Positions 3,529 to 47,955 of a stretch of 64,000 nt of DNA are shown piece after piece. Origin of the DNA: an uncultured Mucispirillum sp. (GTDB lineage: Bacteria; Chrysiogenota; Deferribacteres; Deferribacterales; Mucispirillaceae); NCBI GenBank assembly GCA_944324495.1, contig CALUWN010000002.1, positions 62,001 through 126,000 on the forward strand, in the 5' to 3' direction. How positions within the stretch are numbered: the first letter of the stretch is position 1; each line of letters starts with the position of its first letter. The notes beneath the pieces are model-generated. The model made no database searches. It was not told the DNA's origin and was given only the letters and a program-made list of their open reading frames with translations. A program made the position numbers and the translations under genes.

Positions 3529-3530
3529 AG

Positions 3531-4373: not shown

Positions 4374-5100
4374 GATATATGATGAATATGACTTTTTTGC
4401 ATATTTTTATAATAAGTACTGGATGAAGTATTCCCCAGCATATTTTCAAGAAGCACTTGATTTATTATTTTATAAATACTTAAAAAAAGGCGATAATATA
4501 TTAGATTTATGCTGTGGCACAGGTCATATGGCTGGCTATTTTGAAGAAGCAGGCTATAATGTTTATGGGGTGGATGGCTCAAATGCTATGCTTTCCTATG
4601 CAAAAGAAAACGCAAAGAAAAGCAAGTTTTATCAAATGGATGCAAGAGATTTCACTCTTGATGTAAATTTTAGAGCAATCACCTGCCTTTTTGACAGCAT
4701 AAACCATATGCTAAAAGAAGATGATTTATTAAAAGTATTTAAGAATGTATATAACCATTTAGAAGATAAGGGGCTTTTTTTCTTTGATGTAAACTCATTA
4801 GAAGTGTGTGAAAATGTATATCTCGGTGATATTACAGCAGTGGAAGAAGACAGCGTGTTTATATCAAGGGGAATGTATGATGAAAAGGAAGAGCTTATTA
4901 CATATCTGCTGACATATTTTATTAGGGAAGAGGGCAGCTGGCTAAGGCATGACAGCATGATATATGAAAAATATTACAGTGAAAAGCAAATCAGCAGTCT
5001 TTTAAAAAAGGCTGGCTTTAGTGAAGTAGATATTATATATGGCACAGATATTGATATAGAAGCATTAGAAGATAGAATATTTTTTACAGCATGGAAATAG
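4366..5100 (+). CDS. Class I SAM-dependent methyltransferase, substrate unknown
   Basis: 244-aa protein with a Rossmann methyltransferase core. Motif I is ILDLCCGTGHMAGYF, followed by the acidic end of beta 2 (YGVDGSNAML), AITCLFDSINHM, and FFFDVNSLE as the post-core strand. I choose GTG 4366, because GGGAG (4353-4357) ends 8 nt before it and there is no suitable in-frame ATG. A TTG at 4351 is the alternative. The start overlaps the thiD stop, so the two are probably translationally coupled. The sequence resembles the general small-molecule methyltransferases of the Methyltransf_11/25 type. Nothing visible identifies the substrate. Confidence 0.85.
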   Translation: MVKIYDEYDFFAYFYNKYWMKYSPAYFQEALDLLFYKYLKKGDNILDLCCGTGHMAGYFEEAGYNVYGVDGSNAMLSYAKENAKKSKFYQMDARDFTLDVNFRAITCLFDSINHMLKEDDLLKVFKNVYNHLEDKGLFFFDVNSLEVCENVYLGDITAVEEDSVFISRGMYDEKEELITYLLTYFIREEGSWLRHDSMIYEKYYSEKQISSLLKKAGFSEVDIIYGTDIDIEALEDRIFFTAWK

Positions 5101-5101
5101 T

Positions 5102-14982: not shown

Positions 14983-16137
14983 TTACACCCTAACTTTTCC
15001 AGTTAGTAAATTTTGCATAAGTCCTTTTTTTTGCTCTGTATATAGTTTTAATTGCTTATTTAATAACTCTATTTCTTTATCTGCACTAGATAAAATATCA
15101 GCAATAGCTTTTTGCTCGCAAAAAGAAATTTTAGGAATAAATAACTGGCAAATATCATTTTTATATATATGTGGTTGAGCTCCACCTGTTTGTAGAGAAT
15201 AAAGTTTATTTTGTTGCAATTTTAATATATAAAATAAAAATATTGTATCAAATACATCTTTTTTTCCATATAATACACTACAATCTGAAGCCCATATAGG
15301 ATAATTATGATACCATATATATCCAGCATAAGCACCAGATGCACTTATAGTAATTATATTATGAAAATTATAAGCATTATGGAAATAAGGAATTTCTCTT
15401 CCTGCTGCAATTACTGGTATTATGCCATTGTTTGCGATTTCTGAAGTTAAGGGTTGCCCTTTTTTATATATGATTTCTTTATCTACTACTTCCCCCAATT
15501 TGATTGTTTTCCATTCATCAGTAAAGCCTTGAAGTCTTTTTTTGCCAGTTAGTAGTGCTTGCATTAAGCCTTTTTTTTGTTTTTCTTTATATGCAATTAA
15601 GTCTTTTGTTTGCTCTATTGCTTTATCCCATAAGGATAATATTTCAGCAATTTTTTTCTGCTCTTCCAGTGGGGGAACTGGGATATAACAAGAATAAAAA
15701 TTTTCTGAATTAAGATTTAATAGACCATCATTTCTTACTCCTGCATTAATTAGCCTATATAGTTGCTTATTTAAAAAACCACTTATAAATAATTGTTCGT
15801 AATAAAAGCAATTATGATTTTTTATTCTAAAGCATTCAAAAACATTTGGAATTGCGGCATGTTCTCTATCTTTTAACAAATAAATACAACCTTGTGGATA
15901 CTTTTTTGAATTTCCTTTATTATATGCAAAATCATATTTTTTTATTTTGATATATTTTTCATATTGTTTTCCTGCTAAATCTCTACCAAATTTTTCTGTT
16001 TGATTAACAAAACCTATTCCTGCTGATATACTTAATGGCTCTAATTGTTCAGATAAAACCCTAGTATTATTAATTTCTACCACTTCCCCTAACTTTTTTA
16101 CTTCCCAAGCTTGTGGCACTTGTATATTTTCACTCAT
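14983..16137 (-). CDS. hsdS: Type I restriction enzyme, S (specificity) subunit
   Basis: 384 aa with the standard TRD1-CR1-TRD2-CR2 layout. TRD1 starts AWEVKKLGEVVEINN. The first conserved helix ends KGLMQALLTGKKRL (about residues 185-200). TRD2 starts DEWKTIKLGEVVDKE, and the second helix ends KGLMQNLLTGKVRV at the C-terminus. It selects the bipartite target sequence of the HsdM/HsdR complex. Both the promoter-proximal leader (shared with rhuM) and the 3' end (copied twice downstream) are involved in repeats, and the 3' tail is flanked by a 13-bp inverted repeat (14970-14982 and 15020-15032). This suggests that the gene end has been a recombination site. Confidence 0.95.
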   Translation of the reverse strand: MSENIQVPQAWEVKKLGEVVEINNTRVLSEQLEPLSISAGIGFVNQTEKFGRDLAGKQYEKYIKIKKYDFAYNKGNSKKYPQGCIYLLKDREHAAIPNVFECFRIKNHNCFYYEQLFISGFLNKQLYRLINAGVRNDGLLNLNSENFYSCYIPVPPLEEQKKIAEILSLWDKAIEQTKDLIAYKEKQKKGLMQALLTGKKRLQGFTDEWKTIKLGEVVDKEIIYKKGQPLTSEIANNGIIPVIAAGREIPYFHNAYNFHNIITISASGAYAGYIWYHNYPIWASDCSVLYGKKDVFDTIFLFYILKLQQNKLYSLQTGGAQPHIYKNDICQLFIPKISFCEQKAIADILSSADKEIELLNKQLKLYTEQKKGLMQNLLTGKVRV

Positions 16138-16166
16138 ATTTCACCCATAAATCATTGATAAATAAC

Positions 16167-16189
16167 CAATGTGCAAATTTTGCACATTG
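16167..16189. promoter_or_regulatory. 23-bp palindrome in the hsdS leader
   Basis: Arms CAATGTGCAAA and TTTGCACATTG around a central T form a perfect 11-bp palindrome. It lies between the rhuM stop and the hsdS start, about 30 bp before the hsdS ATG. An identical copy with matching flanks lies before rhuM (17225-17247). It could be an operator or an RNA hairpin controlling the downstream gene. Confidence 0.6.
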
Positions 16190-16193
16190 CTTT

Positions 16194-17195
16194 TTATTTG
16201 TTTTTATGCTTTATTTTTCTTGTAATAGTTTCAAGTTCTAACATATCCTGCTTATCTGCTTCCTCTGCTTCCTCTGCTTCTGCCTTTTTACGGGCATTAT
16301 TAAATATTTCGTATTTTTGATATGCTATTTGTTCTGCTTCTTGTTTGGAAATGCTCCCATGTGATTTTAATATTTCATATTCATTAAAATCTAAAAAAGT
16401 ATCTATTTTTTCTTTCCAGTCATTTATTTTTATAGCTATTCTTCTTTCTGCTTGGTTTTCTGCATAATCTAAAAACATAGTTACAAGCCTTTCTAATTCT
16501 TTTACTTCTGTTTCTACAAGATAATTTTTTGCAACTATCACATCTGTTTTTCTTACCCTTGATTTTTCCCAAGTTTGCAAGTTCATATTTGGTTTTGTTT
16601 CATCTGCCCTTTCTATAATTATTTCTGCCGCTGTTTTTTTAGTAACTGCATATAACATTTTATTTTGTACTTCTGCAAAAAAGAGCTGTATATCATTACT
16701 TTTAGGGTCATAGTCTTGAGATAATGCAAATAAATCTTTTATCTTTTGATAAAATCTTTTTTCACTAGCTCTTATTTCCCTTATTTTTTCTAATAATTCA
16801 TCAAAATAATCCCATTTACTAGGATTTTTAAGCCTTTCGGAGTTAATAGAAAAACCTTTGATAATATATTCTTTAATTACTTGAGTAACCCATTTTCTAA
16901 AATTTATAGCTATACTGGAATTTGTCCTATACCCTACAGCTAAAATTATATCAAGACTGAAAAATTCTACTGGTTTGTCAGAATTTAACTGTATTACTTT
17001 TTTCATATTTGTTTCTTTATCTACTTCATTATCTGCAAATATATTATTTATATGCCTTGATACCCCTGTTCTATCAATATTGTAAAGTTTTGCAATACTA
17101 TCCCTATCTAGCCATAATGTCTCATTTTCTAAATCTAGCTGTAAATCTAATTTTCCATTTTTTGTTTCATATATAATTAACTGTTTTTCACTCAT
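16194..17195 (-). CDS. RhuM family protein
   Basis: 333 aa. The N-terminus has LDLENETLWLDRDSIAKLYN, an HTH-like segment (IDRTGVSRHINNIF), and FFSLDIILAVGYRTNSSIAI, the hallmark of the RhuM (virulence_RhuM) family. The C-terminal half is helical, with AEVQNKMLYAVTKKTAAEII, and ends in a lysine/glutamate-rich tail containing a short repeat (EAEEAEEAD). RhuM genes are often nested inside type I restriction operons; the molecular function is unknown. The HTH-like region would fit a DNA-binding role, perhaps at the palindromes that precede this gene and hsdS. Confidence 0.9.
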   Translation of the reverse strand: MSEKQLIIYETKNGKLDLQLDLENETLWLDRDSIAKLYNIDRTGVSRHINNIFADNEVDKETNMKKVIQLNSDKPVEFFSLDIILAVGYRTNSSIAINFRKWVTQVIKEYIIKGFSINSERLKNPSKWDYFDELLEKIREIRASEKRFYQKIKDLFALSQDYDPKSNDIQLFFAEVQNKMLYAVTKKTAAEIIIERADETKPNMNLQTWEKSRVRKTDVIVAKNYLVETEVKELERLVTMFLDYAENQAERRIAIKINDWKEKIDTFLDFNEYEILKSHGSISKQEAEQIAYQKYEIFNNARKKAEAEEAEEADKQDMLELETITRKIKHKNK

Positions 17196-17224
17196 TTTTC
17201 ACCCATAACTTATTGATAAATAAC

Positions 17225-17247
17225 CAATGTGCAAATTTTGCACATTG
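17225..17247. promoter_or_regulatory. 23-bp palindrome in the rhuM leader (duplicate of that before hsdS)
   Basis: Same palindrome as at 16167-16189, located 29 bp before the rhuM ATG. The similarity extends on both sides over about 55 bp and into the first codons (both proteins begin MSE), so the whole leader plus start was duplicated. Confidence 0.6.
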
Positions 17248-17329
17248 CTTTCCTGTGAATATACTACACATATAAATATATAATATATTCCCCAGTTGTA
17301 AAGGATTTCTTTACAACTGGTATATTTTG

Positions 17330-18820
17330 CTATAAGCCTAAGTTTTTTAAATGCTCTTGCATAGCTTTTTTTACAGTTTCTAGCTCTTTTTCTAAGCTTT
17401 CAATTTTGCTTGCAATTTCTTTCATATCCACTTGCTCTTCTTCTTCAAAAGTATCAACATAGCGGGGGATATTTAAGTTATAGTCGTTTTCTTTCACTTC
17501 TTCATAGCTTGCTTTATGGCTATATTTTTCTATTTCCTTGCGTTCTTTATAGGTTGTATATATTTTATCTATTATTTCACTGCTTAGTTCGTTTTGTGTT
17601 TTGTTTTGTATATATTCTTTACTAGCATCAATAAATAAAATATCTTTTCTATTTTCGTTTGCTCCACCAAGTTGCCTGCTTTTATCAAATATTAATATGG
17701 CTACAGGTATGCCTGTTGTTTGAAATAAACCACTAGGCAAGCCTATTACAGCATCTAGTATATTTTCTTCTATTAATGATTTACGAATGGCTGCTTCACT
17801 TGCCCCCCTAAAAAGCACACCATGTGGCACAATTACTGCCACTCTGCCTTCTCTTTCCTTTGCTACTTCTACCATATGGCTTATAAAAGCATAGTCGCCC
17901 TTACTTTTTGGTGGCATACCACGGTGAAAACGGTGAAATTCATCAGATTCTAAATTTTCAGCACCCCATTTATCCAGTGAAAATGGTGGGTTTGCTACTA
18001 CTATTTCAAATTTTTGTAAGCCTTTTTCATCTCTTATAAGCGGGTTATTTAATGTATCGCCCCAAAATATTTCTGCATCATTAATATTATGTATAAACAT
18101 ATTCATTCTAGCCAAGTTATATGTGCTACCCACTTTTTCCTGCCCGTATATAGCATAGTCATCACTTCCCACTTCTTCTGCCACCTGTATAAGCAGTGAG
18201 CCAGAACCGCAAGTTGGGTCGCATATTCTATCCCCCTTTTTAGGCATGGCAAGTTTTGCAAGTAGTTTTGATACAGTTTCTGGGGTAAAAAATTCACCAG
18301 CTTTTTTTCCTGCATCGCTTGCAAACTGTTTTAAAAGATACATATATGATTTGCCTAATATGTCAGATTTGCCAGCTTCTGTTAAATCAATACTTGCAAA
18401 ATCTCTTAAAAGGTTAGAAAGCATTTGGTTTCTTTGGTCTGCTTGCCCTAGTATTGACTGGCTATTAAAATCAACTGTAAAAATATCTTTTAAATGCTCT
18501 TCGTTGGCTTCTTCTATGGCATGAAGTGCTTTATTTATTATCTCCCCCAAATTATCTGCCGATATTTGCTCTAGCACTTTATCAAAAGATGCATCCTCTG
18601 GTATTTTAAAACGCATATTGTTCTTTTTTATCTCAAGGCGTGGGTTATCCTTGCCATATTTTTCTATTAACTGCGCTAGTTCCACCTTATGCATATCACT
18701 TATATATTTAAAAAATAACATTGTAAGTGCATAGTCTTTAAAAATACTTGCATCTACTATCCCGCGGGAAGAATTTGCTGCGTCCCATAATGTTGTATTA
18801 AGTTTTTCTTGGCTTATCAT
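17330..18820 (-). CDS. hsdM: Type I restriction enzyme, M (adenine methyltransferase) subunit
   Basis: 496 aa. The N-terminal HsdM_N helical domain starts TTLWDAANSSRGIVDASIFK. Methyltransferase motif I is DRICDPTCGSGSLLIQ (about residue 202) and motif IV is VVANPPFSL (about 277), the NPPF of N6-adenine enzymes. A C-terminal coiled coil (EIASKIESLEKELETVKKA) contacts HsdS. Its ATG overlaps the stop of the half-S gene (ATGA), with GGAG 7 nt upstream. It modifies host DNA and forms the M2S core for HsdR. Confidence 0.97.
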   Translation of the reverse strand: MISQEKLNTTLWDAANSSRGIVDASIFKDYALTMLFFKYISDMHKVELAQLIEKYGKDNPRLEIKKNNMRFKIPEDASFDKVLEQISADNLGEIINKALHAIEEANEEHLKDIFTVDFNSQSILGQADQRNQMLSNLLRDFASIDLTEAGKSDILGKSYMYLLKQFASDAGKKAGEFFTPETVSKLLAKLAMPKKGDRICDPTCGSGSLLIQVAEEVGSDDYAIYGQEKVGSTYNLARMNMFIHNINDAEIFWGDTLNNPLIRDEKGLQKFEIVVANPPFSLDKWGAENLESDEFHRFHRGMPPKSKGDYAFISHMVEVAKEREGRVAVIVPHGVLFRGASEAAIRKSLIEENILDAVIGLPSGLFQTTGIPVAILIFDKSRQLGGANENRKDILFIDASKEYIQNKTQNELSSEIIDKIYTTYKERKEIEKYSHKASYEEVKENDYNLNIPRYVDTFEEEEQVDMKEIASKIESLEKELETVKKAMQEHLKNLGL

Positions 18821-19383
18821 ATTATTGCTCCATTCATCATATTTTCTAGTTGCATTTTTCTTAAATTATAAATTGATTGGCTTATTGCATATTGTTTGCT
18901 ATTTAGCCTATATGCTTCCACTATTTCTTTTTGCGTATCCAAACTTGGCAAATCTATCTCAAGTTCGTTTAAAGCATTTCTTGGCAGAGTAGGGGTTGTG
19001 GCAGAAAGTAGTGTTACTTTTTCCAGTTGCTTTTTACAAGCTGGACTATTTAACCAAATAGCAAGATATGGTTTATAACAGGTTGGTTTTATCACATCTA
19101 TTATAAATACAGCATTAGATGTAACAAATGGCTTCTCACTTTCAAAAATTGCAGCCTTAAATGTGCCACGTGCTGTTAGCAGTATTTCCCCTTGACTAAG
19201 TGGGGTAATACTCTTAATATTATCCGTAGATATTTTAATACATTGGTGGTAGTCGATTTCCCCAAATGCATTAATATCTTTTGCTTGTAGCAGATAGAAA
19301 GGTCCAGTTTCATCTGCTACAGGTTGCCCTCTAAAGCTATAACCTGCTTTAATAGAGCAAAAACTCTTAATCTGTAGCTTCAT
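18817..19383 (-). CDS. Half-size HsdS-like specificity protein (single TRD)
   Basis: 188 aa, about half a normal S subunit. It has one target-recognition domain (CSIKAGYSFRGQP, FYLLQAKDIN, GEILLTARGTFKAAI, TLPRNALNELEIDLPSLDTQ) followed by one long helix (EIVEAYRLNSKQYAISQSIY). Single-TRD S proteins are known to work as dimers in some type I and BcgI-like systems. It is the first gene of the operon, behind a good promoter and a strong AAGGAGG (19391-19397), and it is coupled to hsdM by an ATGA overlap. With the full HsdS 2.7 kb downstream, the operon encodes two S-type proteins. Confidence 0.85.
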   Translation of the reverse strand: MKLQIKSFCSIKAGYSFRGQPVADETGPFYLLQAKDINAFGEIDYHQCIKISTDNIKSITPLSQGEILLTARGTFKAAIFESEKPFVTSNAVFIIDVIKPTCYKPYLAIWLNSPACKKQLEKVTLLSATTPTLPRNALNELEIDLPSLDTQKEIVEAYRLNSKQYAISQSIYNLRKMQLENMMNGAII

Positions 19384-36880: not shown

Positions 36881-37438
36881 TTATGTGGAATGGCTTTTTT
36901 TAATACTTCTTATAATTTTATTATCAAGTTTATTTGGCTCTATTGATTTACATCTTTCAACAACTTCTATAATATTTTGAACATCAACTTTAAATGCATC
37001 AGTATTGATTTTACTGTTTGCTAGTTCTTTTGCCCCTTTATCATTAGACATAAATAAAGGGATATTCAAATACTGAGCAGTAATTAAAGAATGGATTTCA
37101 CCTAAATTATGTCCTGCCTTATGGTCTTTAAATACATTAAAACTCTCTAGTTTTGTATTATTCATAAACTCATAAAAATCTTCAAATGTATTTTGATAAG
37201 ATTGTTTATAAAAACTATCAACTAAAAAATCATCATACTTAAGAACTTGAATAAATTCATCTTTTACTAAACTTTTAATATGTACATTATGAAACAACTC
37301 ACTGTGTAGTACATATATATGAATTACAGGTTTAACATTTAATATTTCGAAAATAGATTTAAAAAAGGGCATATTATTAGATTTTTCCAGTATAAGATTG
37401 CAAAAATCAGCATCTAATAAAACAAGATTATTGCCCAT
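36881..37438 (-). CDS. PIN-like domain protein (putative RNase)
   Basis: 185 aa. Acidic residues fall where a PIN nuclease has them: NLVLLDADFCNLIL at the N-terminus, NLGEIHSLITAQYLNIPLF (glutamate) in the middle, and MSNDKGAKELAN (aspartate) near the end. It overlaps the ImmA/IrrE-like gene by 11 bp and is the last of three coupled genes. By analogy with toxin modules it may cleave RNA; the sequence is diverged, so this is tentative. Confidence 0.6.
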   Translation of the reverse strand: MGNNLVLLDADFCNLILEKSNNMPFFKSIFEILNVKPVIHIYVLHSELFHNVHIKSLVKDEFIQVLKYDDFLVDSFYKQSYQNTFEDFYEFMNNTKLESFNVFKDHKAGHNLGEIHSLITAQYLNIPLFMSNDKGAKELANSKINTDAFKVDVQNIIEVVERCKSIEPNKLDNKIIRSIKKSHST

Positions 37439-38255
37439 TTTTGAGTTCCAGATTTATTAATTCTACTTCATTATTTTCAGAAATATTATTAAGTGGAATA
37501 TCAAGTTTTTCTCTAGTTTTATCTATTTTATTTTTATTAAAAATATTTGCATTTTCTACTTTTGAAATAAGTTCAGGAAAACCTTTTATACCTTTTTTTT
37601 GTGAGCGAATACCAAGGCGAGTAAATCCATAATATTTAATATAATTGTTCATATTATCTAAAATAATACTATTATTTATTAATAATTCAGCTATATTTTT
37701 ACTGATTATGTCTATTTCATAAAGTCTAACAACAACAGCTTTAAATGGAACAAAAAATATATCCATTAAATTTAAAGAAATTTTTATGAAATCATTTAGT
37801 TTAATTGTATCACTAAATTCTTTGAATAAATCTGTTGCCTTTTCTTGGAAAATTTGAGTAGGCATTAATACAAGGGCAGCAAAATAATTCATTGCAGCTT
37901 CTTCTAATTCCTTACTGAACATATTTTTATATTCATTGCATGAATTATATAGATGCTCATGAAGATTTAGGATATGTGCAAGTTCATGGGCAGCAGTAAA
38001 TACTTGCTTTTCAATTACCTTATATGTATTTATATGGACAAAATTAGTAAGTTTACCATTGACAGATTTTTGGATAAGTGAGCCATCATTTTCTTCATTT
38101 TCTTGTGGAAAATAAAGTATAATACATTTTTCATCTAATATTTCAAAAATATTATCACGAATAGGCTCTATTTTCTTTAGGTAGTCATATTGATTTATAA
38201 AGTTTTGGATTTTGTCTTGTATGGTAACAGGTAAATCTGGAATAATCATAGGCAA
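37428..38255 (-). CDS. ImmA/IrrE family metallopeptidase
   Basis: 275 aa. The zinc motif HELAHILNLHEH (about residues 88-99) and the following EEAAMNYFAALVLMP are the ImmA/IrrE (COG2856) signature. Such peptidases cleave partner HTH repressors to induce stress or mobile-element genes. It begins 1 bp after the HTH gene, its probable substrate, and overlaps the PIN-like gene. It has a longer C-terminal tail than typical members. Confidence 0.88.
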   Translation of the reverse strand: MPMIIPDLPVTIQDKIQNFINQYDYLKKIEPIRDNIFEILDEKCIILYFPQENEENDGSLIQKSVNGKLTNFVHINTYKVIEKQVFTAAHELAHILNLHEHLYNSCNEYKNMFSKELEEAAMNYFAALVLMPTQIFQEKATDLFKEFSDTIKLNDFIKISLNLMDIFFVPFKAVVVRLYEIDIISKNIAELLINNSIILDNMNNYIKYYGFTRLGIRSQKKGIKGFPELISKVENANIFNKNKIDKTREKLDIPLNNISENNEVELINLELKNGQ

Positions 38256-38256
38256 T

Positions 38257-38592
38257 TTATTTTATACTTTCATATGCTTCTTTAAAATCTATATATGTAT
38301 CAATAATATCTAGTATTTCATCACAATTTTCATTTTTTTCAAAATTACTCATGCAATGAACCATTTTAGAATAAGCATCATTATTCTTATAATTAAGTAT
38401 TTCTATAGGGTCTACAGAAAAAAGTTCTGCAATATTTTTTATCTGCATAGGTGTAATACTAAGGCGACCTGTTACTAACCTTGTATAATCATTATCATTA
38501 AAATTAAGCATTTTACAAAGGTTTTCTTTTCCTTGTTCTGTTTTATTAGCCAATAAAAATATTTTATAACCTATATTACGAAGGTTAGACAT
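38257..38592 (-). CDS. XRE-like HTH regulator
   Basis: 111 aa. It has a helix-turn-helix region with NFNDNDYTRLVTGRLSITP, then MQIKNIAELFSVDPIEILNY, the closing helices of lambda-repressor-like domains. The start is taken at 38592, 8 nt after GGAG; a GTG at 38601 overlaps that site and is unlikely. It probably represses its own operon through repeats just upstream and is controlled by the ImmA/IrrE-like protein. Confidence 0.75.
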   Translation of the reverse strand: MSNLRNIGYKIFLLANKTEQGKENLCKMLNFNDNDYTRLVTGRLSITPMQIKNIAELFSVDPIEILNYKNNDAYSKMVHCMSNFEKNENCDEILDIIDTYIDFKEAYESIK

Positions 38593-38608
38593 ATTAAACA
38601 CTCCAAAC

Positions 38609-38699
38609 TTAAGTATGCTTCTTCAAGCACTTAATGTTACAAAAACAAAACAATGTATGTATTATGTATAAAAGATAGCATTTTTGAATACATACTTAA
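38609..38699 (-). promoter_or_regulatory. Candidate operator region of the HTH-ImmA-PIN operon
   Basis: TTAAGTATG (38609-38617) and its complement CATACTTAA (38691-38699) bracket the region, with further TATGTAT/ATACATA half-sites between about 38654 and 38694. The rest of the 395-bp gap to 38987 holds no supported gene, only a weak GAGC/GCTC hairpin near 38933-38950 downstream of the GIY-YIG gene. Confidence 0.4.
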
Positions 38700-38987
38700 T
38701 TCATTTCTATAATATAAGAACTATGATGTCAAGTGAAATATAACTTATTACTGACAATATAGCCACTACATACATTATCGGACAACTTTATAACATCATT
38801 AACATAAAAAGAAATATTACTAAATTATAAATATGATTATTTGATAAAAACGGGTAAAAAGGAAAAGGATAAAGGGAATAGGCAAAATTAAGTAAAAAAT
38901 ATATAAGAGAAAATATGATATAAAAACAAAATCGGGAGCGAAAAAAAGCTCGTGAAAAGTTTTTATAAAGATAAGTAATTTGAAATA

Positions 38988-39692
38988 TTAGTTTTCTGTT
39001 TCATCTTTTTTTCTATAGATATCTAACTGGTTACCATTTTTATCATGCCAGTCTGTCCAGCCATTAATTGACTGGTTCATAATAACAGCACCTGCAAAAC
39101 TTGGGGAGCATTGCCCTAATTCAAAATCTTCTAATAGTTTACCGTGGTCATTAAATTTTATATTTTCACGGGTCATTCTTGCTTTTTGAGAAACGCCTTT
39201 ATCTTCAGTAATACCTATAATACTCCCCTTTAAAATAGTCCATTTACCATTTTCAACTTTAGCACTTACTTTAATAGTTCTATTATCAGATTTTTTTTGT
39301 TTTTCAAAATAATATGTATCATTAGGTATTAATTTACTTTCCACATTTTCAGTGGCATTTTCAAAAATTTCTTCTTTATTTTCATTTACTGGAAATATTA
39401 CTTTACCATCAAAAGATGAAAGTAATTGGAGAACAACATCTTTATCTAATGCAAATAATTCAGTATCACTAATTCTACTTTTACTAAAAATCTCATGGAG
39501 CATTTTTTCTTTATTTTTATATTCACTAACTTCTATAGCATATTCTCTTTTTAACCCTGTAACATTACGATATCCGTTGGATTCTAAAAAACGCATTCTT
39601 TCATTATACTGCTCTGTTTTTGTCTGCCCTATTTTTACAAGCCCATTAACAGCAGTAGACATTATATAAATAATCCCTTTTTCTTCACTCAT
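38988..39692 (-). CDS. GIY-YIG nuclease-like protein (T5orf172 type) with DUF4357 domain
   Basis: 234 aa. The N-terminus GIIYIMSTAVNGLVKIGQTK is the GIY-YIG core of the T5orf172 subgroup. The C-terminal part from VSAKVENGKWTILKGSIIGI, with LGQCSPSFAGAVIMNQSING, is DUF4357. This combination is frequent in defence and mobile contexts; the target is unknown. The start is ATG 39692, 8 nt after GGAG. A longer frame upstream (to 39743) adds a hydrophobic stretch without a ribosome site and is rejected. It stands alone on the minus strand between two defence operons. Confidence 0.82.
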   Translation of the reverse strand: MSEEKGIIYIMSTAVNGLVKIGQTKTEQYNERMRFLESNGYRNVTGLKREYAIEVSEYKNKEKMLHEIFSKSRISDTELFALDKDVVLQLLSSFDGKVIFPVNENKEEIFENATENVESKLIPNDTYYFEKQKKSDNRTIKVSAKVENGKWTILKGSIIGITEDKGVSQKARMTRENIKFNDHGKLLEDFELGQCSPSFAGAVIMNQSINGWTDWHDKNGNQLDIYRKKDETEN

Positions 39693-39903
39693 ATATAAAC
39701 TCCAAATATATGGTATTATATAAAATTTATAAAAAAGATACAAGGGAATAAAAGGAAATGGGGAGCGAAGAAAGACAAAAAAAGATTGATAAATTATGAA
39801 AATTAATTACTTTCTGGGTGATTACTTTCATATAATGCAATATATTCTTCTAAATCTCTTTTTGCACTGTACTTTTCTATAATATATATTAATTAATATG
39901 TAA

Positions 39904-41604
39904 CTATTTTGATATCCATGGGTTAAAACCACCTATTAATCCTTGATTAAATTTTATAATTTCTATATCATCATTACTCTTGATATTATATTCATTTTTA
40001 TAAAATGAGATAATCTGTATATTATTTTCTGAAGCAATTTTAAACAGATCATGAATAAATGGATTTATGGATTCATCATCTAATGCATGATCTAGTGCAT
40101 CAATTAGTAAAACAGGAAAAACTGGTAAACCATCAAAATGTTTTTTTATGAATTTAAACATACATAAATGAGCTATAATTTTTATAATAATATAGCGAGC
40201 ATCACTACCTGGGTCAAAATAGTTATCTACTGAATTGTTCTCAGATTTTTTTTCAACAAATCTTAATTTATTTTTTAGATGATCAAACTCTAACATTAGA
40301 TTTGGAATATTTTTATCTGCAGATACACACGAAATATTATTAGATAAATTTATATACGTATTTTTTAAATCATTATTAAATTCATTTAATAACTTATCAT
40401 CATATGATAATTCTAACTCTTTTATTTCATCTTTTAAATCCTTTATTTGTTTGTCTATTTTATCATTATTTATTTCTTTCTTCTGGCTTAATATTTCAAT
40501 ATAATTTTTTGCTAATTCGATATTTTTTGCAGTTTCTATGAAATTTTTAGATGTAAATGGAGCATTTATACTATCAATTATATGCACCACCTCTTTTCTC
40601 TGTTTATTTAATTGTTTTATGATTTTTTTTATATCTAATAAATCATTAATAGCAATTTTTTCTTTAAATTTTATGATTTCATTTGATATGTCTTGTGTAT
40701 ATTCTTTATAACTACTGTTTTCTATTATTCTATTAAACTGATCGAGTAACCTAATAGTATTATTATGATTGTTATTAATAAACGTAAGCTGTTGATTAAT
40801 AAATTCATACTTTTTTAATTGATTATCTATTGTATTTAGTTTTGCAAGACAATATGTATAATCATCAAAATCATATTGTGGCTCATAGTAATGCTTGCTA
40901 ATCTTTTTAATTATATCTTCATCTAGTAAATTATTTTCTTTGTAGTCGATAGATAATATATCATATATCTCTTTTAATTTTGTCTTAATAAATTCAAAAT
41001 AGAGTTTATTATTTTCTATATTTTTAGATTTATTATCTAATTCTTTTATTTCTCTTATTTTTTTTGCAATATTTTCTACATTATTATAATTAAATAGAAA
41101 ATTCATTATTGCTCTATATCTATAAAGGTAATTTAATGATGGTGAAAAAAGATTCTCACTAATAGATGTAATGTGAGAATCAATTTTATTTAGAAAAGAA
41201 AATGCCCTGTATGAAATATTTTCGTTAAAAACTGTACTATATATATCAATATAATTATTGTCTATTGATAATAGCTGATTTATTTGCTGTTTATATGTAT
41301 CTAAATTACATTGTATATATTCTTTATCATATTTAAAAGAGCATTCTGATTGTTTATTAAGACTTCTTTTAAATAAATAAGAAATATTGTTTTTTAATAT
41401 TTCAATTTCAACATAGTTTATATTTTTTATACTGTTAGAGCCGAATAACTTATTATCACTAGAACCTAATATAAAATCAAAAAGATTAAAAAAATTAGTT
41501 TTACCAGAATCATTATTTCCTATTATAATAGTATTTTTTTTAAAAGAATATTCTTTTGTCTTGTTTTCATTATTATAAAGAATTATTTTATTTATAGTTA
41601 TCAT
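39904..41604 (-). CDS. SMC/RecF-like ATPase of an ABC-three-component-like system
   Basis: 566 aa. Walker A is KNTIIIGNNDSGKTNFFNLF (about residues 23-42). The centre is a long coiled coil with many asparagine, lysine and glutamate residues (IKDLKDEIKELELSYDDKLL), and the C-terminal lobe has the signature-like FDPGSDARYIIIKIIAHL and Walker B FPVLLIDALDHALDDE. This is the rad50/DUF2326-like layout used in predicted ABC-3C conflict systems. The start overlaps the middle gene by 17 bp. It probably senses invading DNA and controls the effector encoded two genes upstream. Confidence 0.8.
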   Translation of the reverse strand: MITINKIILYNNENKTKEYSFKKNTIIIGNNDSGKTNFFNLFDFILGSSDNKLFGSNSIKNINYVEIEILKNNISYLFKRSLNKQSECSFKYDKEYIQCNLDTYKQQINQLLSIDNNYIDIYSTVFNENISYRAFSFLNKIDSHITSISENLFSPSLNYLYRYRAIMNFLFNYNNVENIAKKIREIKELDNKSKNIENNKLYFEFIKTKLKEIYDILSIDYKENNLLDEDIIKKISKHYYEPQYDFDDYTYCLAKLNTIDNQLKKYEFINQQLTFINNNHNNTIRLLDQFNRIIENSSYKEYTQDISNEIIKFKEKIAINDLLDIKKIIKQLNKQRKEVVHIIDSINAPFTSKNFIETAKNIELAKNYIEILSQKKEINNDKIDKQIKDLKDEIKELELSYDDKLLNEFNNDLKNTYINLSNNISCVSADKNIPNLMLEFDHLKNKLRFVEKKSENNSVDNYFDPGSDARYIIIKIIAHLCMFKFIKKHFDGLPVFPVLLIDALDHALDDESINPFIHDLFKIASENNIQIISFYKNEYNIKSNDDIEIIKFNQGLIGGFNPWISK

Positions 41605-42037
41605 GCATTAATTCCTTTAATAAAATAATAGTATCATATTGTATTAATTTATCTATTATTTTTTTTTGATTTTTACTTATATTTTTTAAATTGTTATTTA
41701 TAATATTATATTCTTTCATATTTACGGATATAGTATTATTCTGACTTAAAGATATATAATTGCTTTCTTTTAAAATATCAATACAGTATAATATATCATT
41801 AAAATCTTCTGCTTTACTAATAATACATTTTTTAAAAGTATTTATAACTGCTTCCTTAAATATTTCATTTTTAAAATTTTTTATATTATCCATATTATAG
41901 AAAATCCATGTAAAAATTATTAATTTAGAGATATTATTGATTTTAAATATAACTAAGAAAGATAACATAAAATCAATTATAGAAGCATATTTTATTAAAA
42001 TTTTATTATTTAATTTCCCATCTAATTCTTTTATCAC
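41588..42037 (-). CDS. Small middle component of the ABC-3C-like system
   Basis: 149 aa from a GTG start at 42037, 8 nt after GAGGA. A longer frame to 42085 would run inside the effector gene without a site. It is helical, with an N-terminal hydrophobic part (IIDFMLSFLVIFKINNISKL) and a C-terminal winged-helix-like part (DILKESNYISLSQNNTISVN). Small wHTH-like middle proteins coupled to both effector and ATPase define the ABC-3C layout. It overlaps both neighbours (32 and 17 bp). Confidence 0.6.
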   Translation of the reverse strand: MIKELDGKLNNKILIKYASIIDFMLSFLVIFKINNISKLIIFTWIFYNMDNIKNFKNEIFKEAVINTFKKCIISKAEDFNDILYCIDILKESNYISLSQNNTISVNMKEYNIINNNLKNISKNQKKIIDKLIQYDTIILLKELMHDNYK

Positions 42038-43058
42038 TTGGAGTATCCTCTTTAGTAAGATAAATATAGCAACCATCAGAAACAAATTGATTAATCTCTT
42101 GTGCTACACGAGTAATATTAATTACTTTGTCAATAGTTTTGGAAAATAATTCATTTGGAAACTTTGGTTTATCTATATATAAAACTTTTTCATAATTATC
42201 AAAAGCTTGTCTTTCATTATTATCAAAGGATTTTTTTTCTATATCATCATAATTACTTTTAACATATTCATATATCATCATATATCCTATGTATTTTTTA
42301 ATCATAAAATCAGGTAAATCTATTGTTCGTAACTGTCTGACTTCCTCTTTAATATTAGATAAAAGTAGTTCTTCAATATCATTATCAAATTCTTTTCTTT
42401 TTCTATCAATATTTGTATTAAAATTATTTTTATAATCTTTAAGTTCTATAATTATATCTTGAATATCATCATTAGACAATTCACCATGCTCATTTTCATC
42501 TTTTTTTGAGTTTAAAATCTTTTTACCTAAAAGCGAAAGCATATAATTTATAAAATCATGTGTTATATCATTTTTTATATTGTCATTAATAACTGATTTA
42601 AAAAATTTATTGCATAATAACATCTTAATATTATTAAATAATTCTTCTACTGTTGTTTTTTCATATTCTAAATTATTAAATATATAGTTTTTTGTATCAG
42701 TATCGTATAAATTGCTATTTATAATTTTTTCTTTTGCTTTTTTTATATTAAAGATATTATCTGTATGAAGTATAAAAGTAATCTTTTCATTTTTATGTTT
42801 ATTGTAATAGTCTGACCAATATTTAAAAGTTTTATATATAATATCGGTAGATATCTGGTTTGCACTAGTTTTACATTGTATTAATAGTGTTTTTTCGTGG
42901 TTAGTTATTTTAACATCATCATCTTTTTCATATATATATGTTACACCAGTTAAATAATCAGTGTTATTTAGAATATGGTAAATGAAAGCAACTTTTTGAA
43001 ATTCAAAACCATATTGAGTGTAGACCCCATTATTGCTATACCATTCTGATGTTCCCAT
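42006..43058 (-). CDS. Putative nuclease effector (DUF4297/Cap4-like N-terminus) of the ABC-3C-like system
   Basis: 350 aa. The N-terminal domain has YGFEFQKVAFIYHIL, then YEKDDDVKITNHEKTLLIQCKTS, which matches the E...DD...QxK pattern of Mrr/DUF4297-type PD-(D/E)xK nucleases. The long C-terminal half (from ITHDFINYMLSLLGKK) is helical and may bind the ATPase. It starts 6 bp after the end of the type ISP restriction gene on the same strand and overlaps the middle gene. The likely role is DNA degradation on activation; this is family-based inference. Confidence 0.65.
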   Translation of the reverse strand: MGTSEWYSNNGVYTQYGFEFQKVAFIYHILNNTDYLTGVTYIYEKDDDVKITNHEKTLLIQCKTSANQISTDIIYKTFKYWSDYYNKHKNEKITFILHTDNIFNIKKAKEKIINSNLYDTDTKNYIFNNLEYEKTTVEELFNNIKMLLCNKFFKSVINDNIKNDITHDFINYMLSLLGKKILNSKKDENEHGELSNDDIQDIIIELKDYKNNFNTNIDRKRKEFDNDIEELLLSNIKEEVRQLRTIDLPDFMIKKYIGYMMIYEYVKSNYDDIEKKSFDNNERQAFDNYEKVLYIDKPKFPNELFSKTIDKVINITRVAQEINQFVSDGCYIYLTKEDTPSDKRIRWEIK

Positions 43059-43064
43059 GTCCTT

Positions 43065-43597
43065 TTACTCCACATCAAATTTTGGTAGGTTATCTATAAT
43101 ATCTAGTGTTTTTAGGCTTACAGTTACTACTCTTTTTACTAGATTATAGATATATTTTTCATCAGTAGAATATAAATTTGGGTCATTTTTTATTCCACTT
43201 GCTTTATCTATGGATATTTTATATTGGTCTGCCACCCATTCAATAGGGCTTCTGCCATTTATTACATATTCTAATGCTCTTGGTGGAATATTTTTAAATA
43301 ATATATCATTATTAAACTGTAACTCTGTTTTTTCTTTATTCCATTTCATTTTATCTACTTTATAGCTTGGGTTTTCCTTGCATTCTTCGTCTAAATTATA
43401 TGGCTCTATGGTTTCATAATTTAAGTGAATTTCTGCTAAATCTCTACCTGCTTTAGTATAAGCATTAAAATCTGATACAGTTTTTACAAAAGGTATGCGA
43501 GCAAGTGTTTTCTTTAAATCGTTTGCAAATTTTTGCCTATATTCTTTATTATGAAGTATGCCATATACATAATAAAAAATGTCTTCTTTAGAAATCC
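43065..43597 (-). pseudogene. Out-of-frame C-terminal part of the type ISP restriction-modification gene
   Basis: This segment continues the upstream gene after the G tract, but in another frame. It reads ISKEDIFYYVYGILHNKEYR, then FANDLKKTLARIPFVK, and ends DIIDNLPKFDVE before a stop. The Y-V-Y-G-I-L-H and DLKK-L-RIP motifs are the standard C-terminal landmarks of type ISP/IIG target-recognition domains, so this is the true C-terminus (about 177 codons). The frame is fully open, with no further lesion. Gain of one G or loss of two in the tract would rejoin it. Confidence 0.85.
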
Positions 43598-46500
43598 CCC
43601 CCCCCCGTATCTTTTTTGGTATTCTTCTAAAGCGTAATCAGTTATGGCATATTCTTTTTTATAGCCATACTCATCAACTTCTTCGTTTAATTTTTCAATA
43701 GCATTTTCCGTATCATATTTAGTATAATAATATAATGGAAAACATTGTATACTTGAATCTAATATATGAATATCAACTATATTATTACTTATAAAAGGTA
43801 TAAATTCTTTTGAACCTCCTGTTCCATTGTTTGCAATCACTATATTATTGTGTTTAGGTGTTGGAAATATATAAGGCATCTGATATGTTCTTTGTATTAA
43901 TGGTTTATAATAGTGAAAGTATTGTTTAGTAAATGGTCTATAAGTTGAAATTGTAGTATATTTACCACCATATACAAGCATATTTTTATTTTTTAACTGT
44001 TGTTTTAGTGTATCTGACCATTTTATTTTTGTATCATCGACAATAATATCATTTTCTGTAATTAAACCACTTTCTATTTTTGAAACTTCGGCATTATAGT
44101 AATTAATCGTATTAGAAATATTTATAGCAAGATTATCTTTTGAAAAGTTATATATCCAATTATCCCTACTGGTTAAAATTCCACTAGAATGTTTTTGAAA
44201 AATACATTTTTTAAGTTTATCTTTTTTTTCAGCTAATACTAAAAATTTTTCAAAAGTATCATTTCTTTGGTTAAGCCAGTCATTATTTTTATCTGGTATT
44301 ATTACTTCCCAATTTAATGTATCCATTAAATTATTTTTGATATATTCTAGTTTCTCTTTTGTTTTTAGGTTATTAGGAACAGTGCTGTAATTTATAGTGG
44401 CAGGTTCTTTTTTACTGTTATCTTTAATAAGTAAAAGTATGGCAATACCTGTCATACTTTCATTACCAAAAATATTTTCCCCTTCATCTTTATTAAACTT
44501 TCTAATATTTCCTTTTAAATCAAAACAATAAATATGCGAAAAATCTTCACTTAAGCATTTTCTAAAACCATCAAATGCATTATTATCAATATATCCATTA
44601 TTAGTAATAAAGCATATTATGCCGTTATCTTCTAGTCTATCTGTTGCCCATCTAAATGCTTTTACATAAGAATCATACACTTTATTTTTCAATTGTGCTT
44701 TGGAGTGTAAAGCATAAGTTACTGAAATCTTATTTTCTAATTTTTCATATTTTGTATTTTTATTATTATCATTTTCAGATTTTTGTCCCATGGAATAGGG
44801 TGGGTTGCCTATTATTACCTTTATAGGTGCATTTTTCTGCTTTATAAGACGGGTTGAATTTTCTTCTAAAAAGTTTTTTTCTTTTATATCTATTATAGTA
44901 TCTTTTGTTTCTGCTAATTGAAAAGTATCAGTTAAAACTATACCTTCAAATGGGGTGTACTCTTCTTTTTTGCTTAATGTGTGGTATGTTTCTTCAATAT
45001 TAATAGCTGCAATATAGTAGGCTAATAATACAAGTTCGTTGGCATGTATTTCATTTTTATATTTATATTCTAAATCTTCATTTTTTATTAAGCCACTTTG
45101 TAAAAGCCTTGTAATAAATGTGCCTGTGCCTGTAAATGGGTCTATAATATGAATATCTTTATCACTTATAGATTTATTAAAATGTTTATTAAGCCCATAT
45201 TCTACTGCTTTTATTATAAAATCAACTGCTTCTACTGGAGTATATACAATACCTAATTTTTCAGATGCACTTTTAAAGGCAAGTTTGAAAAATTTACTGT
45301 ATAATTCTTTAATAATCATCTGCCTTTCTTCTACTGTTTGAATAGAATCAACTTTCCTTTTAACAGAATCATAAAATTTATGTAGTTTTTCAGAGCCTTT
45401 TATAAGCCTGCCGTCGTCCATATTATCTAAAACTTCTTGTATGGCTTTTGATACTGGGTTATTATTAACAAAAGAATATGTAGAAAATAAAGCCTCAAAT
45501 ATAGGTTTTGTGATTAAATGCTGGCTTATCATTTCTATGGCATCATCTTGGGTTATATCATTATTTAAGTTTGCCCTTAAAATATGTAAAAATGAATTAA
45601 ATGCTTTTCTAGTATTTTCATTACTTTCTAATAATTCATTTATGGTTTTAATATGTAGTTTTGCTAAATCTGTTACTTCTGTTGCCCATTTTTCCCAGTA
45701 GATTTTATCGCCACATTTTTGCACTATTTTATTATATAAAGCATCTGCCAATGCTTCATGGTAACCTATTTCTAAATCTAAATTATTATGTGAATATGTT
45801 GTTTGATTGCCATTATTACCAATATGAGATGATACAATTCTATTTTGGTTTCCTTTATTAAACTGTAAAGAGTTTACTATATTATTAAACCTATCATCAT
45901 GGGAGCGTAAAGCCTGTAATACATTCCATATTATACTGTATTTTTTATTGTCATTAAGTGCCACTTCTGGTGGTACATCATCTGGCACTACAATAGGCAG
46001 TATAATATATCCATATTTTTTATTTGGGCTTTTTCTCATAACCCTGCCAACTGACTGCACTATATCTACCATAGAACTTCTTGGGCTTAAAAATACTACT
46101 GCATCAAGGGAAGGTACATCAATACCTTCAGATAAACACCTAGCATTAGAAAGTATTTTACATGTATTTTCAGCAGGCTCTTTTTTTAAATAACTTAATT
46201 TATTATTTCTTTCAATACTGGACATTTTACCGTCTATATGGTCTACATCTAATTTTACAAGGTCGTTTGCTTCATAATCAAAAAAGGTATATGCATTATT
46301 AACAAGTTCTTTAAATTTTTCTGATGCTTTAATAGTGCCAGTAAAGGCAACGGCTCTTTTCATTGGCTCTGGGTCGTTTTGCTCTGTATAATTTGTTATA
46401 TCTACTAAATTATGTTTTGAAAGGGCATTCCATACACCAACAATTTTTCCATAGTCATCTAGTTCTTTTGTATTAATATCTCTTTGGAAATATCTGTGAA

Positions 46501-47770
46501 CATAACTTTGGCTAACACTTAATATTATAACTTTATAATCAGTTAATAAATTTTCTTCTACAGCTTCACCAAAACCAAGCCTGTAAAATTCTCTGCCATA
46601 TACTTCTTCATCGTCCATTGACCATAATATAACATCACTATCTTCTGCTTTTTTCTTTATACTTTCACTAAATACTTTTGGGGTGGCAGTCATATATATA
46701 CGCTTTTTACCCTTTATAAAATTATTATTATGTATTTTAGTGAAGTTTGATTCATCTTTACCAGATAGTGTGGCACCTGTTGTCCTATGGGCTTCGTCGC
46801 ATATTATTAAATCAAATTCAAAATCACACTGTTTTTGCCCTTCATATATAACATCTATGGACTGATAAGTTGAAAATACTACTTTCATTACATTATTAGG
46901 CATACTTTTATATCTTTTTACAAAAGAATCTACATTAGTAGAGGCTGTATATTGAAATTCAGTTAAATCATCGCCTATGCTGTCTTCTTCTTTCTTGCCT
47001 ACACTGCTATCAGAGCAGACAGGAATACAACCAATAGTAACAGATGTTTCTAAAAGCCATTCTTTAATATTTTGAGATACTAAAGATATAGATGGTGCAA
47101 GAAATAGTATTGTTTTACCTGCTCCAAAAGTTTCAGCTAATTTTAAACTTGTAAATGTTTTACCAGTACCACAAGCCATTATCAGCTTGCCCCTGTCTTC
47201 TGTTTCAAAACCTTTTAAAATATTTTCTATTGCCTGCTTTTGATGTGGTCTTAATTCTTTTTTAGTATGTATGCTTTTTATATTTTCTACATTTGTAAAA
47301 TTGCCCCAGTCTATATCTTCATCGTTTATAAAATCATTAAAATCAATATAGCTTGTAGGGATAAGCTGTTTTTCTAGGGTAGATTTTATATTAGAGCCCC
47401 ATTTAGATGCTGTTGTTACTATTAACCTATTAGAGAAATGAAATTTTTCACCGTCTTTTATAAAACTTTTTTCACTACAGCTTATAAAAGAATCAATATC
47501 GCTTTTATGTATTGTAGCATCTTTATCAAAAAATTTACATTGTATTGCTGTATATTTATCTTCATACTTATGCTTTGCAACTAAATCTATACCAGTATCT
47601 GCACCATCTCTATATGGAAAATCATTCCACAGCCATATTTTTTCATAGATATTTTGATATACTTTTGAAACAGTAAGATATTGTTTTGTAAACCGTTCAA
47701 ATAAACTACCTTGGTGATGTTTGTTTTCTGCTTCTTCTCTAAATTTATTAAAAAGTATATCAATATCCAT
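43514..47770 (-). CDS. Type ISP (LlaGI-like) restriction-modification enzyme, frameshifted by an 11-G tract
   Basis: Single-chain translocating restriction-modification enzyme. It has an N-terminal Mrr-like nuclease (GADTGIDLVAKHK, AIQCKFF, about residues 55-80), then a helicase with Walker A IMACGTGKTFTSLKLAE (about 200), DEAH box LIICDEAHRT (about 326) and motif VI SVGRVMRKSP. Methyltransferase motif I DPFTGTGTF (about 880) and NPPY in IGNPPYSMG (about 987) follow, then a target-recognition region. In this sequence the frame changes at 43596-43606 and ends after YGGGGFLKKT... at 43514, giving 1418 aa. The corrected gene (43065-47770) would be 1568 aa, matching LlaGI-type enzymes of about 1570. 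The final ~165 residues of the DNA-recognition region are lost in this phase. Confidence 0.93.
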   Translation of the reverse strand: MDIDILFNKFREEAENKHHQGSLFERFTKQYLTVSKVYQNIYEKIWLWNDFPYRDGADTGIDLVAKHKYEDKYTAIQCKFFDKDATIHKSDIDSFISCSEKSFIKDGEKFHFSNRLIVTTASKWGSNIKSTLEKQLIPTSYIDFNDFINDEDIDWGNFTNVENIKSIHTKKELRPHQKQAIENILKGFETEDRGKLIMACGTGKTFTSLKLAETFGAGKTILFLAPSISLVSQNIKEWLLETSVTIGCIPVCSDSSVGKKEEDSIGDDLTEFQYTASTNVDSFVKRYKSMPNNVMKVVFSTYQSIDVIYEGQKQCDFEFDLIICDEAHRTTGATLSGKDESNFTKIHNNNFIKGKKRIYMTATPKVFSESIKKKAEDSDVILWSMDDEEVYGREFYRLGFGEAVEENLLTDYKVIILSVSQSYVHRYFQRDINTKELDDYGKIVGVWNALSKHNLVDITNYTEQNDPEPMKRAVAFTGTIKASEKFKELVNNAYTFFDYEANDLVKLDVDHIDGKMSSIERNNKLSYLKKEPAENTCKILSNARCLSEGIDVPSLDAVVFLSPRSSMVDIVQSVGRVMRKSPNKKYGYIILPIVVPDDVPPEVALNDNKKYSIIWNVLQALRSHDDRFNNIVNSLQFNKGNQNRIVSSHIGNNGNQTTYSHNNLDLEIGYHEALADALYNKIVQKCGDKIYWEKWATEVTDLAKLHIKTINELLESNENTRKAFNSFLHILRANLNNDITQDDAIEMISQHLITKPIFEALFSTYSFVNNNPVSKAIQEVLDNMDDGRLIKGSEKLHKFYDSVKRKVDSIQTVEERQMIIKELYSKFFKLAFKSASEKLGIVYTPVEAVDFIIKAVEYGLNKHFNKSISDKDIHIIDPFTGTGTFITRLLQSGLIKNEDLEYKYKNEIHANELVLLAYYIAAINIEETYHTLSKKEEYTPFEGIVLTDTFQLAETKDTIIDIKEKNFLEENSTRLIKQKNAPIKVIIGNPPYSMGQKSENDNNKNTKYEKLENKISVTYALHSKAQLKNKVYDSYVKAFRWATDRLEDNGIICFITNNGYIDNNAFDGFRKCLSEDFSHIYCFDLKGNIRKFNKDEGENIFGNESMTGIAILLLIKDNSKKEPATINYSTVPNNLKTKEKLEYIKNNLMDTLNWEVIIPDKNNDWLNQRNDTFEKFLVLAEKKDKLKKCIFQKHSSGILTSRDNWIYNFSKDNLAINISNTINYYNAEVSKIESGLITENDIIVDDTKIKWSDTLKQQLKNKNMLVYGGKYTTISTYRPFTKQYFHYYKPLIQRTYQMPYIFPTPKHNNIVIANNGTGGSKEFIPFISNNIVDIHILDSSIQCFPLYYYTKYDTENAIEKLNEEVDEYGYKKEYAITDYALEEYQKRYGGGGFLKKTFFIMYMAYFIIKNIGKNLQTI
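43596..43606 (-). repeat. 11-G homopolymer tract (phase-variation switch)
   Basis: Eleven C on the plus strand, G on the coding strand, inside the type ISP gene. A multiple of three (9 or 12) keeps the frame; 11 truncates it. It is the longest G/C run I see in the window, in a genome region that is otherwise AT-rich. Confidence 0.95.
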
Positions 47771-47921
47771 TATGCACCTTATAAAAATTATTAGTTATTA
47801 TAATATACATATTTTTAAGTAAAAGCAAATATAATTTATAATAAATATTATATATTATACTGTTTTTGTAACAATTTTATATTAGCGACAATAGGTGTCA
47901 TCTATCCTTTTTCGCATCCAC

Positions 47922-47955
47922 AAAAAAAGGGAAACCAGTTTCCCAGTTTCCCTTA
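47922..47955 (-). terminator. Terminator of sdhCDAB
   Basis: AAGGGAAAC / GTTTCCCTT stem with a 10-nt loop and a T run on the minus strand, 24-57 bp after the sdhB stop. The rest of 47771-47978 holds no gene; a short GACA/TGTC hairpin near 47887 shares TTAGCGACAAT with the leuA-recA gap. Confidence 0.75.

What the first reader, a model, noticed from the sequence alone, without database searches (positions are those of the whole stretch)
43065..47770. Phase-variable type ISP restriction-modification gene, off or altered in this sequence
Eleven G on the coding strand break a gene whose two parts are both intact and collinear. Joined, they give 1568 codons, the size of LlaGI-type enzymes. The tract lies in the DNA-recognition end, so slippage would switch the last ~165 residues rather than remove the whole enzyme. 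The truncated form might keep nuclease, helicase and methylase but lose target recognition. Poly-G switches are classic in host-associated bacteria, but in a single-chain type ISP enzyme they are less familiar.
Basis: partly seen in the sequence, partly recalled or inferred. Interest (0 to 1): 0.75.

Follow-up and report, generated by a model that had tools for sequence, protein, structure and literature searches.

The report
Poly-G switch in restriction-modification gene
A run of eleven Gs interrupts an otherwise intact anti-phage restriction-modification enzyme gene, in a bacterium whose genome carries dozens of similar G runs, so the enzyme is probably flipped on and off by random changes in the run's length; such switches are known in other restriction enzymes but I found no report of one in this enzyme family.

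Summary
Confirmed: an 11-G run (43606-43596, minus strand) splits a Type ISP restriction-modification gene into a 1418-codon part and an intact downstream part; lengths of 9 or 12 give one full-length frame. It is the only G>=9 run in the window but one of 34 in the genome. In this genus G runs peak sharply at 9 (8 is rare), as described for Campylobacter contingency loci, and sit in glycosyltransferases, O-acyltransferases, lipoproteins and another R-M specificity gene. Two same-genus orthologues are intact and lack the tract, so it is recent; the part after it is under purifying selection (dN/dS about 0.1), so the gene is not decaying. Most likely an on/off switch of methylation and restriction together, off in this assembly, working like Campylobacter Cj0031 (Type IIG). 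No reads or sister isolates were available, so length variation is inferred, not shown. I found no published phase-variable Type ISP enzyme; two Akkermansia-group Type ISP genes carry possible 5' tracts.

The parts
43596..43606 (-). 11-G homopolymer on the coding strand, the proposed switch
   Evidence: longest of 34 G>=9 tracts in the genome
43607..47770 (-). Upstream part of the Type ISP gene, 1388 codons: Mrr-like nuclease, SF2 ATPase, coupler, N6-adenine methylase, TRD core with all base-reading loops
   Evidence: Pfam, LlaBIII/LlaGI alignments, motifs DTGIDLVA..QCK, GTGKT, DEAH, DPFTGTGTF, NPPY
43065..43604 (-). Downstream part in the other frame: last TRD core helices and guide, ending in the stop codon
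   Evidence: Type_ISP_C 186-342; LlaBIII 1403-1576, LlaGI chain 1231-1404; 90-93% identical to intact orthologues
43514..43595 (-). Off-frame tail of the 11-G product, 27 residues, partly hydrophobic, ending in a stop
47847..47954 (-). Terminator-like hairpin after sdhB (47954-47927) and promoter-like hexamers (47901-47874, 47874-47847) upstream of the gene; consensus matches only
   Evidence: promoter-like matches no more frequent than in shuffles
39904..43058 (-). Lamassu-like genes (LmuA-like, a small middle gene, LmuB-like) starting 6 nt after the R-M stop codon; possibly co-transcribed
   Evidence: PADLOC LmuA E=2.8e-15, LmuB E=4.3e-24; positions

Best explanation
This is a phase-variable (contingency) Type ISP restriction-modification gene. 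Shown: an 11-G run sits between the DNA-reading core of the target recognition domain and its last helices plus guide; only lengths in the 9/12 class read through to a full 1567-1568 residue enzyme; both halves are intact and under purifying selection; the tract is absent from both orthologues; the genome has a phasome-like set of poly-G genes peaking at 9. Inferred: slipped-strand mispairing changes the run, so cells alternate between full-length enzyme (methylating and restricting) and a truncated product. The 10-G and 11-G products lack the conserved core helices and the guide and most likely fold poorly and have neither activity, so modification and restriction go off together and self-cutting is avoided. 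In this assembly the gene is OFF; the genome's commonest tract length (9) is the ON length.
For: Tract and frames. Domain split exactly at the tract. Orthologues G002 and G004 intact, no tract, same length as a 9-G reading. Downstream part 90-93% identical, dN/dS 0.08-0.13 against the orthologues. Genome-wide poly-G set: 34 tracts in G000; in eight genus genomes 24 exact 8-G against 207 exact 9-G runs, outgroups 16 against 2; same length peak as Campylobacter phasomes (PMC6321876). Contingency-type gene classes and split genes at 10 G. Published tracts above 7 G are classed as hypermutable (PMC4235727). Working precedent Cj0031: 9 G on, 10 G off, tract absent from other alleles (PMC4889913).
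Against: No direct observation of length variation. MutS is present, so rates may be lower than in Campylobacter. The poly-C promoter cassettes of the genus are all exactly C9 in 15 of 15 sites found, so nine-base runs may not vary much here. The activity of the truncated form is inferred from structure, not tested.
Confidence: 0.72

Rival explanations
1. The switch changes activity rather than turning the enzyme off: the truncated 1418-residue form keeps the methylase and all base-reading loops and still methylates (perhaps with changed specificity) but cannot steer DNA into the ATPase, so it does not restrict.
For: All six base-reading loops lie before the tract; the guide reads no bases but steers DNA to the ATPase (PMC4872093); in H. 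pylori JHP1272 a second, distal homopolymer changes specificity instead of activity (PMC3936762).
Against: The missing helices pack on the core beta-sheet and the guide is the most conserved TRD subdomain, which suggests they are needed for folding; the off-frame tail is partly hydrophobic.
Confidence: 0.12
2. A fixed loss-of-function allele: the tract expanded once in this lineage and the gene is now a dead or dying pseudogene.
For: Orthologues have no tract, so nothing shows that switching has been kept over time; a single genome is available.
Against: No other lesion in 1567 codons; the downstream part is under purifying selection; the genome is full of similar tracts with the length peak of contingency loci.
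Confidence: 0.08
3. Assembly or sequencing error: the true length is in frame (or simply different) and the gene is stably on.
For: Homopolymer counts in assemblies can be off by one or more; reads are not available.
Against: Other long tracts are assembled at a narrow range of lengths (25 of 9, 8 of 10); an error of +2 is less likely than +1. Even if the count is wrong, the tract itself is of hypermutable length.
Confidence: 0.06
4. Full-length protein is made from the 11-G gene by transcriptional slippage or ribosomal frameshifting at the run, a built-in leaky fusion rather than a genetic switch.
For: Long homopolymers can cause polymerase slippage (general knowledge).
Against: Not tested here; poly-G contingency genes such as Cj0031 behave as on/off switches.
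Confidence: 0.02

Closest known systems
Cj0031, phase-variable Type IIG R-M enzyme of Campylobacter jejuni NCTC11168 (PMC4889913)
   Same: Single chain with methylase and nuclease; coding-strand poly-G in the distal part of the gene (2573 of 3732 bp); 9 G on, 10 G off; tract absent from most homologues; divergent recognition region
   Different: Type IIG without ATP-driven motor; switching, methylome and phage restriction shown experimentally there, only predicted here
LlaGI / LlaBIII, Type ISP enzymes of Lactococcus (PDB 5ffj, 4xqk; PMC4872093)
   Same: Full domain order and end-to-end homology
   Different: No homopolymer tract is described for them
JHP1272 / HP1353-HP1354, Type IIG of Helicobacter pylori (PMC3936762)
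   Same: Homopolymer near the C-terminal recognition part of a single-chain R-M enzyme
   Different: Two tracts; the distal one changes specificity instead of switching off
HP0667-HP0669, Type ISP locus of H. pylori (PMC3936762)
   Same: Type ISP gene broken by frameshifts
   Different: Frameshifts are not in sequence repeats, so no slippage switch
PglX of Streptomyces coelicolor (PMC4365076)
   Same: Large defence methylase gene, phase-variable by a coding G tract
   Different: Part of a multigene system; no fused nuclease or motor

Membership tests
Type ISP restriction-modification enzymes | One polypeptide with Mrr-like nuclease, SF2 ATPase, coupler, gamma-class N6-adenine methylase and C-terminal TRD in this order | tested here: met
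   Mrr_cat_2 37-161, ResIII 171-365, Helicase_C 471-580, ISP_coupler 691-813, Eco57I 949-1085, Type_ISP_C split by the tract; met for the two frames read together
Type ISP restriction-modification enzymes | Catalytic motifs (PD-QxK-type nuclease, Walker A, DEAH, DPFxGTGTF, NPPY) | tested here: met
Type ISP restriction-modification enzymes | Complete chain in one reading frame | tested here: not met
   In this sequence the 11-G run breaks the frame; orthologues are intact
Type ISP restriction-modification enzymes | ATP-driven translocation, cleavage between head-to-head sites, one-strand m6A methylation | not testable with these tools
   needs biochemistry and a methylome
Poly-G phase-variable (contingency) gene | Homopolymer of hypermutable length (>7 G) inside the reading frame, with one length class in frame | tested here: met
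   11 G; classes; threshold from PMC4235727
Poly-G phase-variable (contingency) gene | Reversible length variation between cells or isolates | not testable with these tools
   no reads and no second isolate; variable-length pattern search of viral contigs found nothing
Poly-G phase-variable (contingency) gene | Intact coding potential on both sides, no decay | tested here: met
Phasevarion (regulon controlled by a phase-variable methylase) | Switching the methylase changes expression of a gene set | not testable with these tools
   needs transcriptomes of clones

The most novel reading that the evidence does not exclude
The tract does not switch the enzyme off but toggles it between a full restriction-modification machine and a methylation-only (or altered-specificity) form, because the break falls between the base-reading core and the guide that feeds DNA to the motor: one homopolymer would then uncouple restriction from modification in a single-chain enzyme.
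Probability: 0.12. Interest if true: 0.72.

Novelty: new variant of a known kind. Interest (0 to 1): 0.47.

Why it matters
It would extend phase-variable restriction-modification (known for Types I, IIG, BcgI-like and III, and for PglX) to the single-chain, motor-driven Type ISP enzymes. It also points to an apparently unreported, genus-wide poly-G contingency system in a Deferribacterales lineage. The gene gives a direct test of whether losing the guide of a Type ISP enzyme removes all activity or only restriction.

Tried and rejected
Search of viral contigs for the tract with variable length: no match. Reading across the tract with a four-letter codon failed because GGGG also occurs in frame upstream; the two parts were analysed separately instead. 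A mismatch-repair defect as the cause of the many tracts was rejected: MutS is present in all 18 genomes tested. Among the 80 best named Type ISP loci none has a long tract in the C-terminal part; one Akkermansia gene has a 5' G9, and a 5' C8 was found in a second genome of that group, a different arrangement. Decay of the gene was rejected. No held paper was found that combines Mucispirillum with phase variation or reports a phase-variable Type ISP enzyme; most subscription literature and REBASE could not be searched. A comparison of G000 tract flanks with 10-G loci of sister species gave few orthologous tracts and no clear case of length difference.

Full report
Observation. The window holds an 11-G run on the minus strand at 43606-43596. 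It is the only G or C run of nine or more in the window; dinucleotide shuffles give 0.02. Upstream of it an ORF starting at 47770 runs into the tract and stops at 43514 after 1418 codons. Downstream, another frame is open from the tract to a stop ending at 43065. Tract lengths of the 9/12 class join the two; the 10-G class adds two residues and the 11-G class 27 residues, partly hydrophobic, before a stop.

What the gene is. The upstream 1388 residues carry an Mrr-like nuclease, an SF2 ATPase, the ISP coupler, an N6-adenine methylase and the first half of Type_ISP_C. The downstream part carries the second half of Type_ISP_C, at profile positions that continue almost without a gap. Both parts match the solved Type ISP enzymes LlaBIII (4xqk) and LlaGI (5ffj). 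The catalytic motifs are present. The gene is a Type ISP enzyme by domain order and homology; its activity is not tested.

Where the break falls. The downstream part starts at LlaBIII residue 1403 and the upstream alignment ends at 1385. In LlaGI/LlaBIII the bases are read by loops I-III of the methylase and loops IV-VI of the TRD core (plus a jaw helix in LlaGI), the last loop at LlaGI 1365-1374 (PMC4872093). The residue equivalent to LlaGI H1368 / LlaBIII N1360 is, by the alignment, H1335 here, 53 residues before the tract. So the truncated form keeps nuclease, motor, methylase and every base-reading loop, and loses the conserved last core helices (LlaGI I1395-I1428) and the whole guide. The guide reads no bases but steers DNA to the ATPase and is the most conserved TRD subdomain.

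Relatives. Three of ten genomes of the genus have a Type ISP gene. In G004 it lies at the same place, between succinate dehydrogenase genes and an RND pump; the G002 contig is too short to tell. Both orthologues are intact (open frames of 1576 and 1588 codons) and have no run of seven or more G: GGAAAAGAAG followed by TAACA stands where the window has G11 followed by ATTTCT, and a 9-G reading has exactly their length. The tract is therefore recent in this lineage. The part after it is 90-93% identical to the orthologues with dN/dS 0.08-0.13, while the base-reading core and jaw are only 56-66% identical, as expected if specificity diverges and the rest is constrained. Codons in the downstream part where only the window differs: 18 synonymous, 8 mostly conservative replacements. 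There is no sign of decay.

Genome context. The 2.43-Mb genome has 34 runs of nine or more G: 25 of nine, eight of ten, and this one of eleven. Over eight genus members there are 24 exact 8-G runs and 207 exact 9-G runs; two outgroups of the order have 16 and 2 (Fisher p about 1e-12; runs inherited by related genomes are not independent, so the p-value is only indicative). Campylobacter phasomes show the same peak, 9 (53%) and 10 (26%) (PMC6321876). The genes hit are typical contingency genes: glycosyltransferases of families 2 and 8, MBOAT O-acyltransferases, sulfatase-fold enzymes, a formyltransferase-GNAT protein, lipoproteins, and a specificity gene whose two Methylase_S domains are parted by ten G next to an N6-methylase gene. 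Most long genes with nine G are in frame across the tract, though L017 and L025 look split at nine; glycosyltransferase, sulfatase and specificity genes with ten G are split, as is this gene with eleven. Mismatch repair (MutS) is present, so rates may be lower than in Campylobacter, which lacks it (PMC4235727).

Organism. 

Mechanism and rivals. Most likely the tract is a slipped-strand on/off switch for both activities of a single-chain enzyme, off here and on at the genome's commonest length. The nearest known case is Cj0031 of C. jejuni, with a distal poly-G, nine on, ten off, tract lacking in other alleles, and switching shown by methylation and phage plating (PMC4889913). Because the truncated form spares the base readers, a methylation-only or altered form is a real though less likely alternative; H. 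pylori JHP1272 shows that a distal homopolymer can change specificity (PMC3936762). A dead allele or an assembly error cannot be excluded without reads but fits the context less well. The Lamassu-like genes begin 6 nt after the R-M stop codon, so truncation about 450 nt earlier might also lower their translation; this is speculation.

Novelty. Phase-variable R-M genes are known in several types; I found no Type ISP case in the held literature, and the H. pylori Type ISP locus is frameshifted without repeats. Two Akkermansia-group Type ISP genes carry homopolymers just after a possible start codon (G9 in L125, C8 in L189), so the phenomenon may be wider. I rate this a new variant of a known kind.

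Noticed in passing
G000 C4:18586-18612, C21:26033-26059, C30:812-838; variants at C10:100 and C10:1101 (L014, L050, L053, L028, L030): A promoter-like cassette TTGACATT-C9-RTGATATAAT lies upstream of lipoprotein and envelope-protein genes; 15 exact sites in 7 genomes of the genus, none in 12 other genomes outside it, and every one has exactly nine C (15-nt spacer), a surprising constancy for a supposed phase-variable spacer.
   Followed up: partly
genus genomes G000-G009 and G011: Sharp peak of G runs at exactly nine, about tenfold more than at eight, absent in outgroups G015 and G020: an apparently unreported genus-wide phasome.
   Followed up: partly
L060 (G000 C23:1-9000), 2129-5302 minus: A second candidate phase-variable R-M system: N6-methylase gene followed by a specificity gene whose two Methylase_S domains are split by ten G, resembling the poly-G S subunits of BcgI-like systems in H. 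pylori.
   Followed up: partly
L125 about 4845-4895 and L189 about 760-800: Type ISP genes of Akkermansia-group genomes with a homopolymer (G9, C8) just after a possible start ATGCAAGAC: independent candidates for a 5' on/off switch.
   Followed up: partly
window 36881-47770; L056 4380-11876: Defence hotspot between the succinate dehydrogenase genes and an RND pump: the Type ISP gene is followed by a Lamassu-like operon, a PDC-S57 gene and a PDC-M69 trio in the window, but by other genes (AAA ATPase pair) in G004.
   Followed up: partly
window 16127-16193 and 17185-17251: 67-bp direct repeats, 96% identical and containing the palindrome GTGCAAATTTTGCAC, at the starts of the RhuM-like and the HsdS-like gene in the Type I R-M locus; a half-size S-like gene (18817-19383) lies before hsdM.
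   Followed up: no
G037 (relative of the same order, 1.6 Mb, 76% complete): 417 nine-G windows, including one run of 23 G; far more poly-G than any other relative searched.
   Followed up: no
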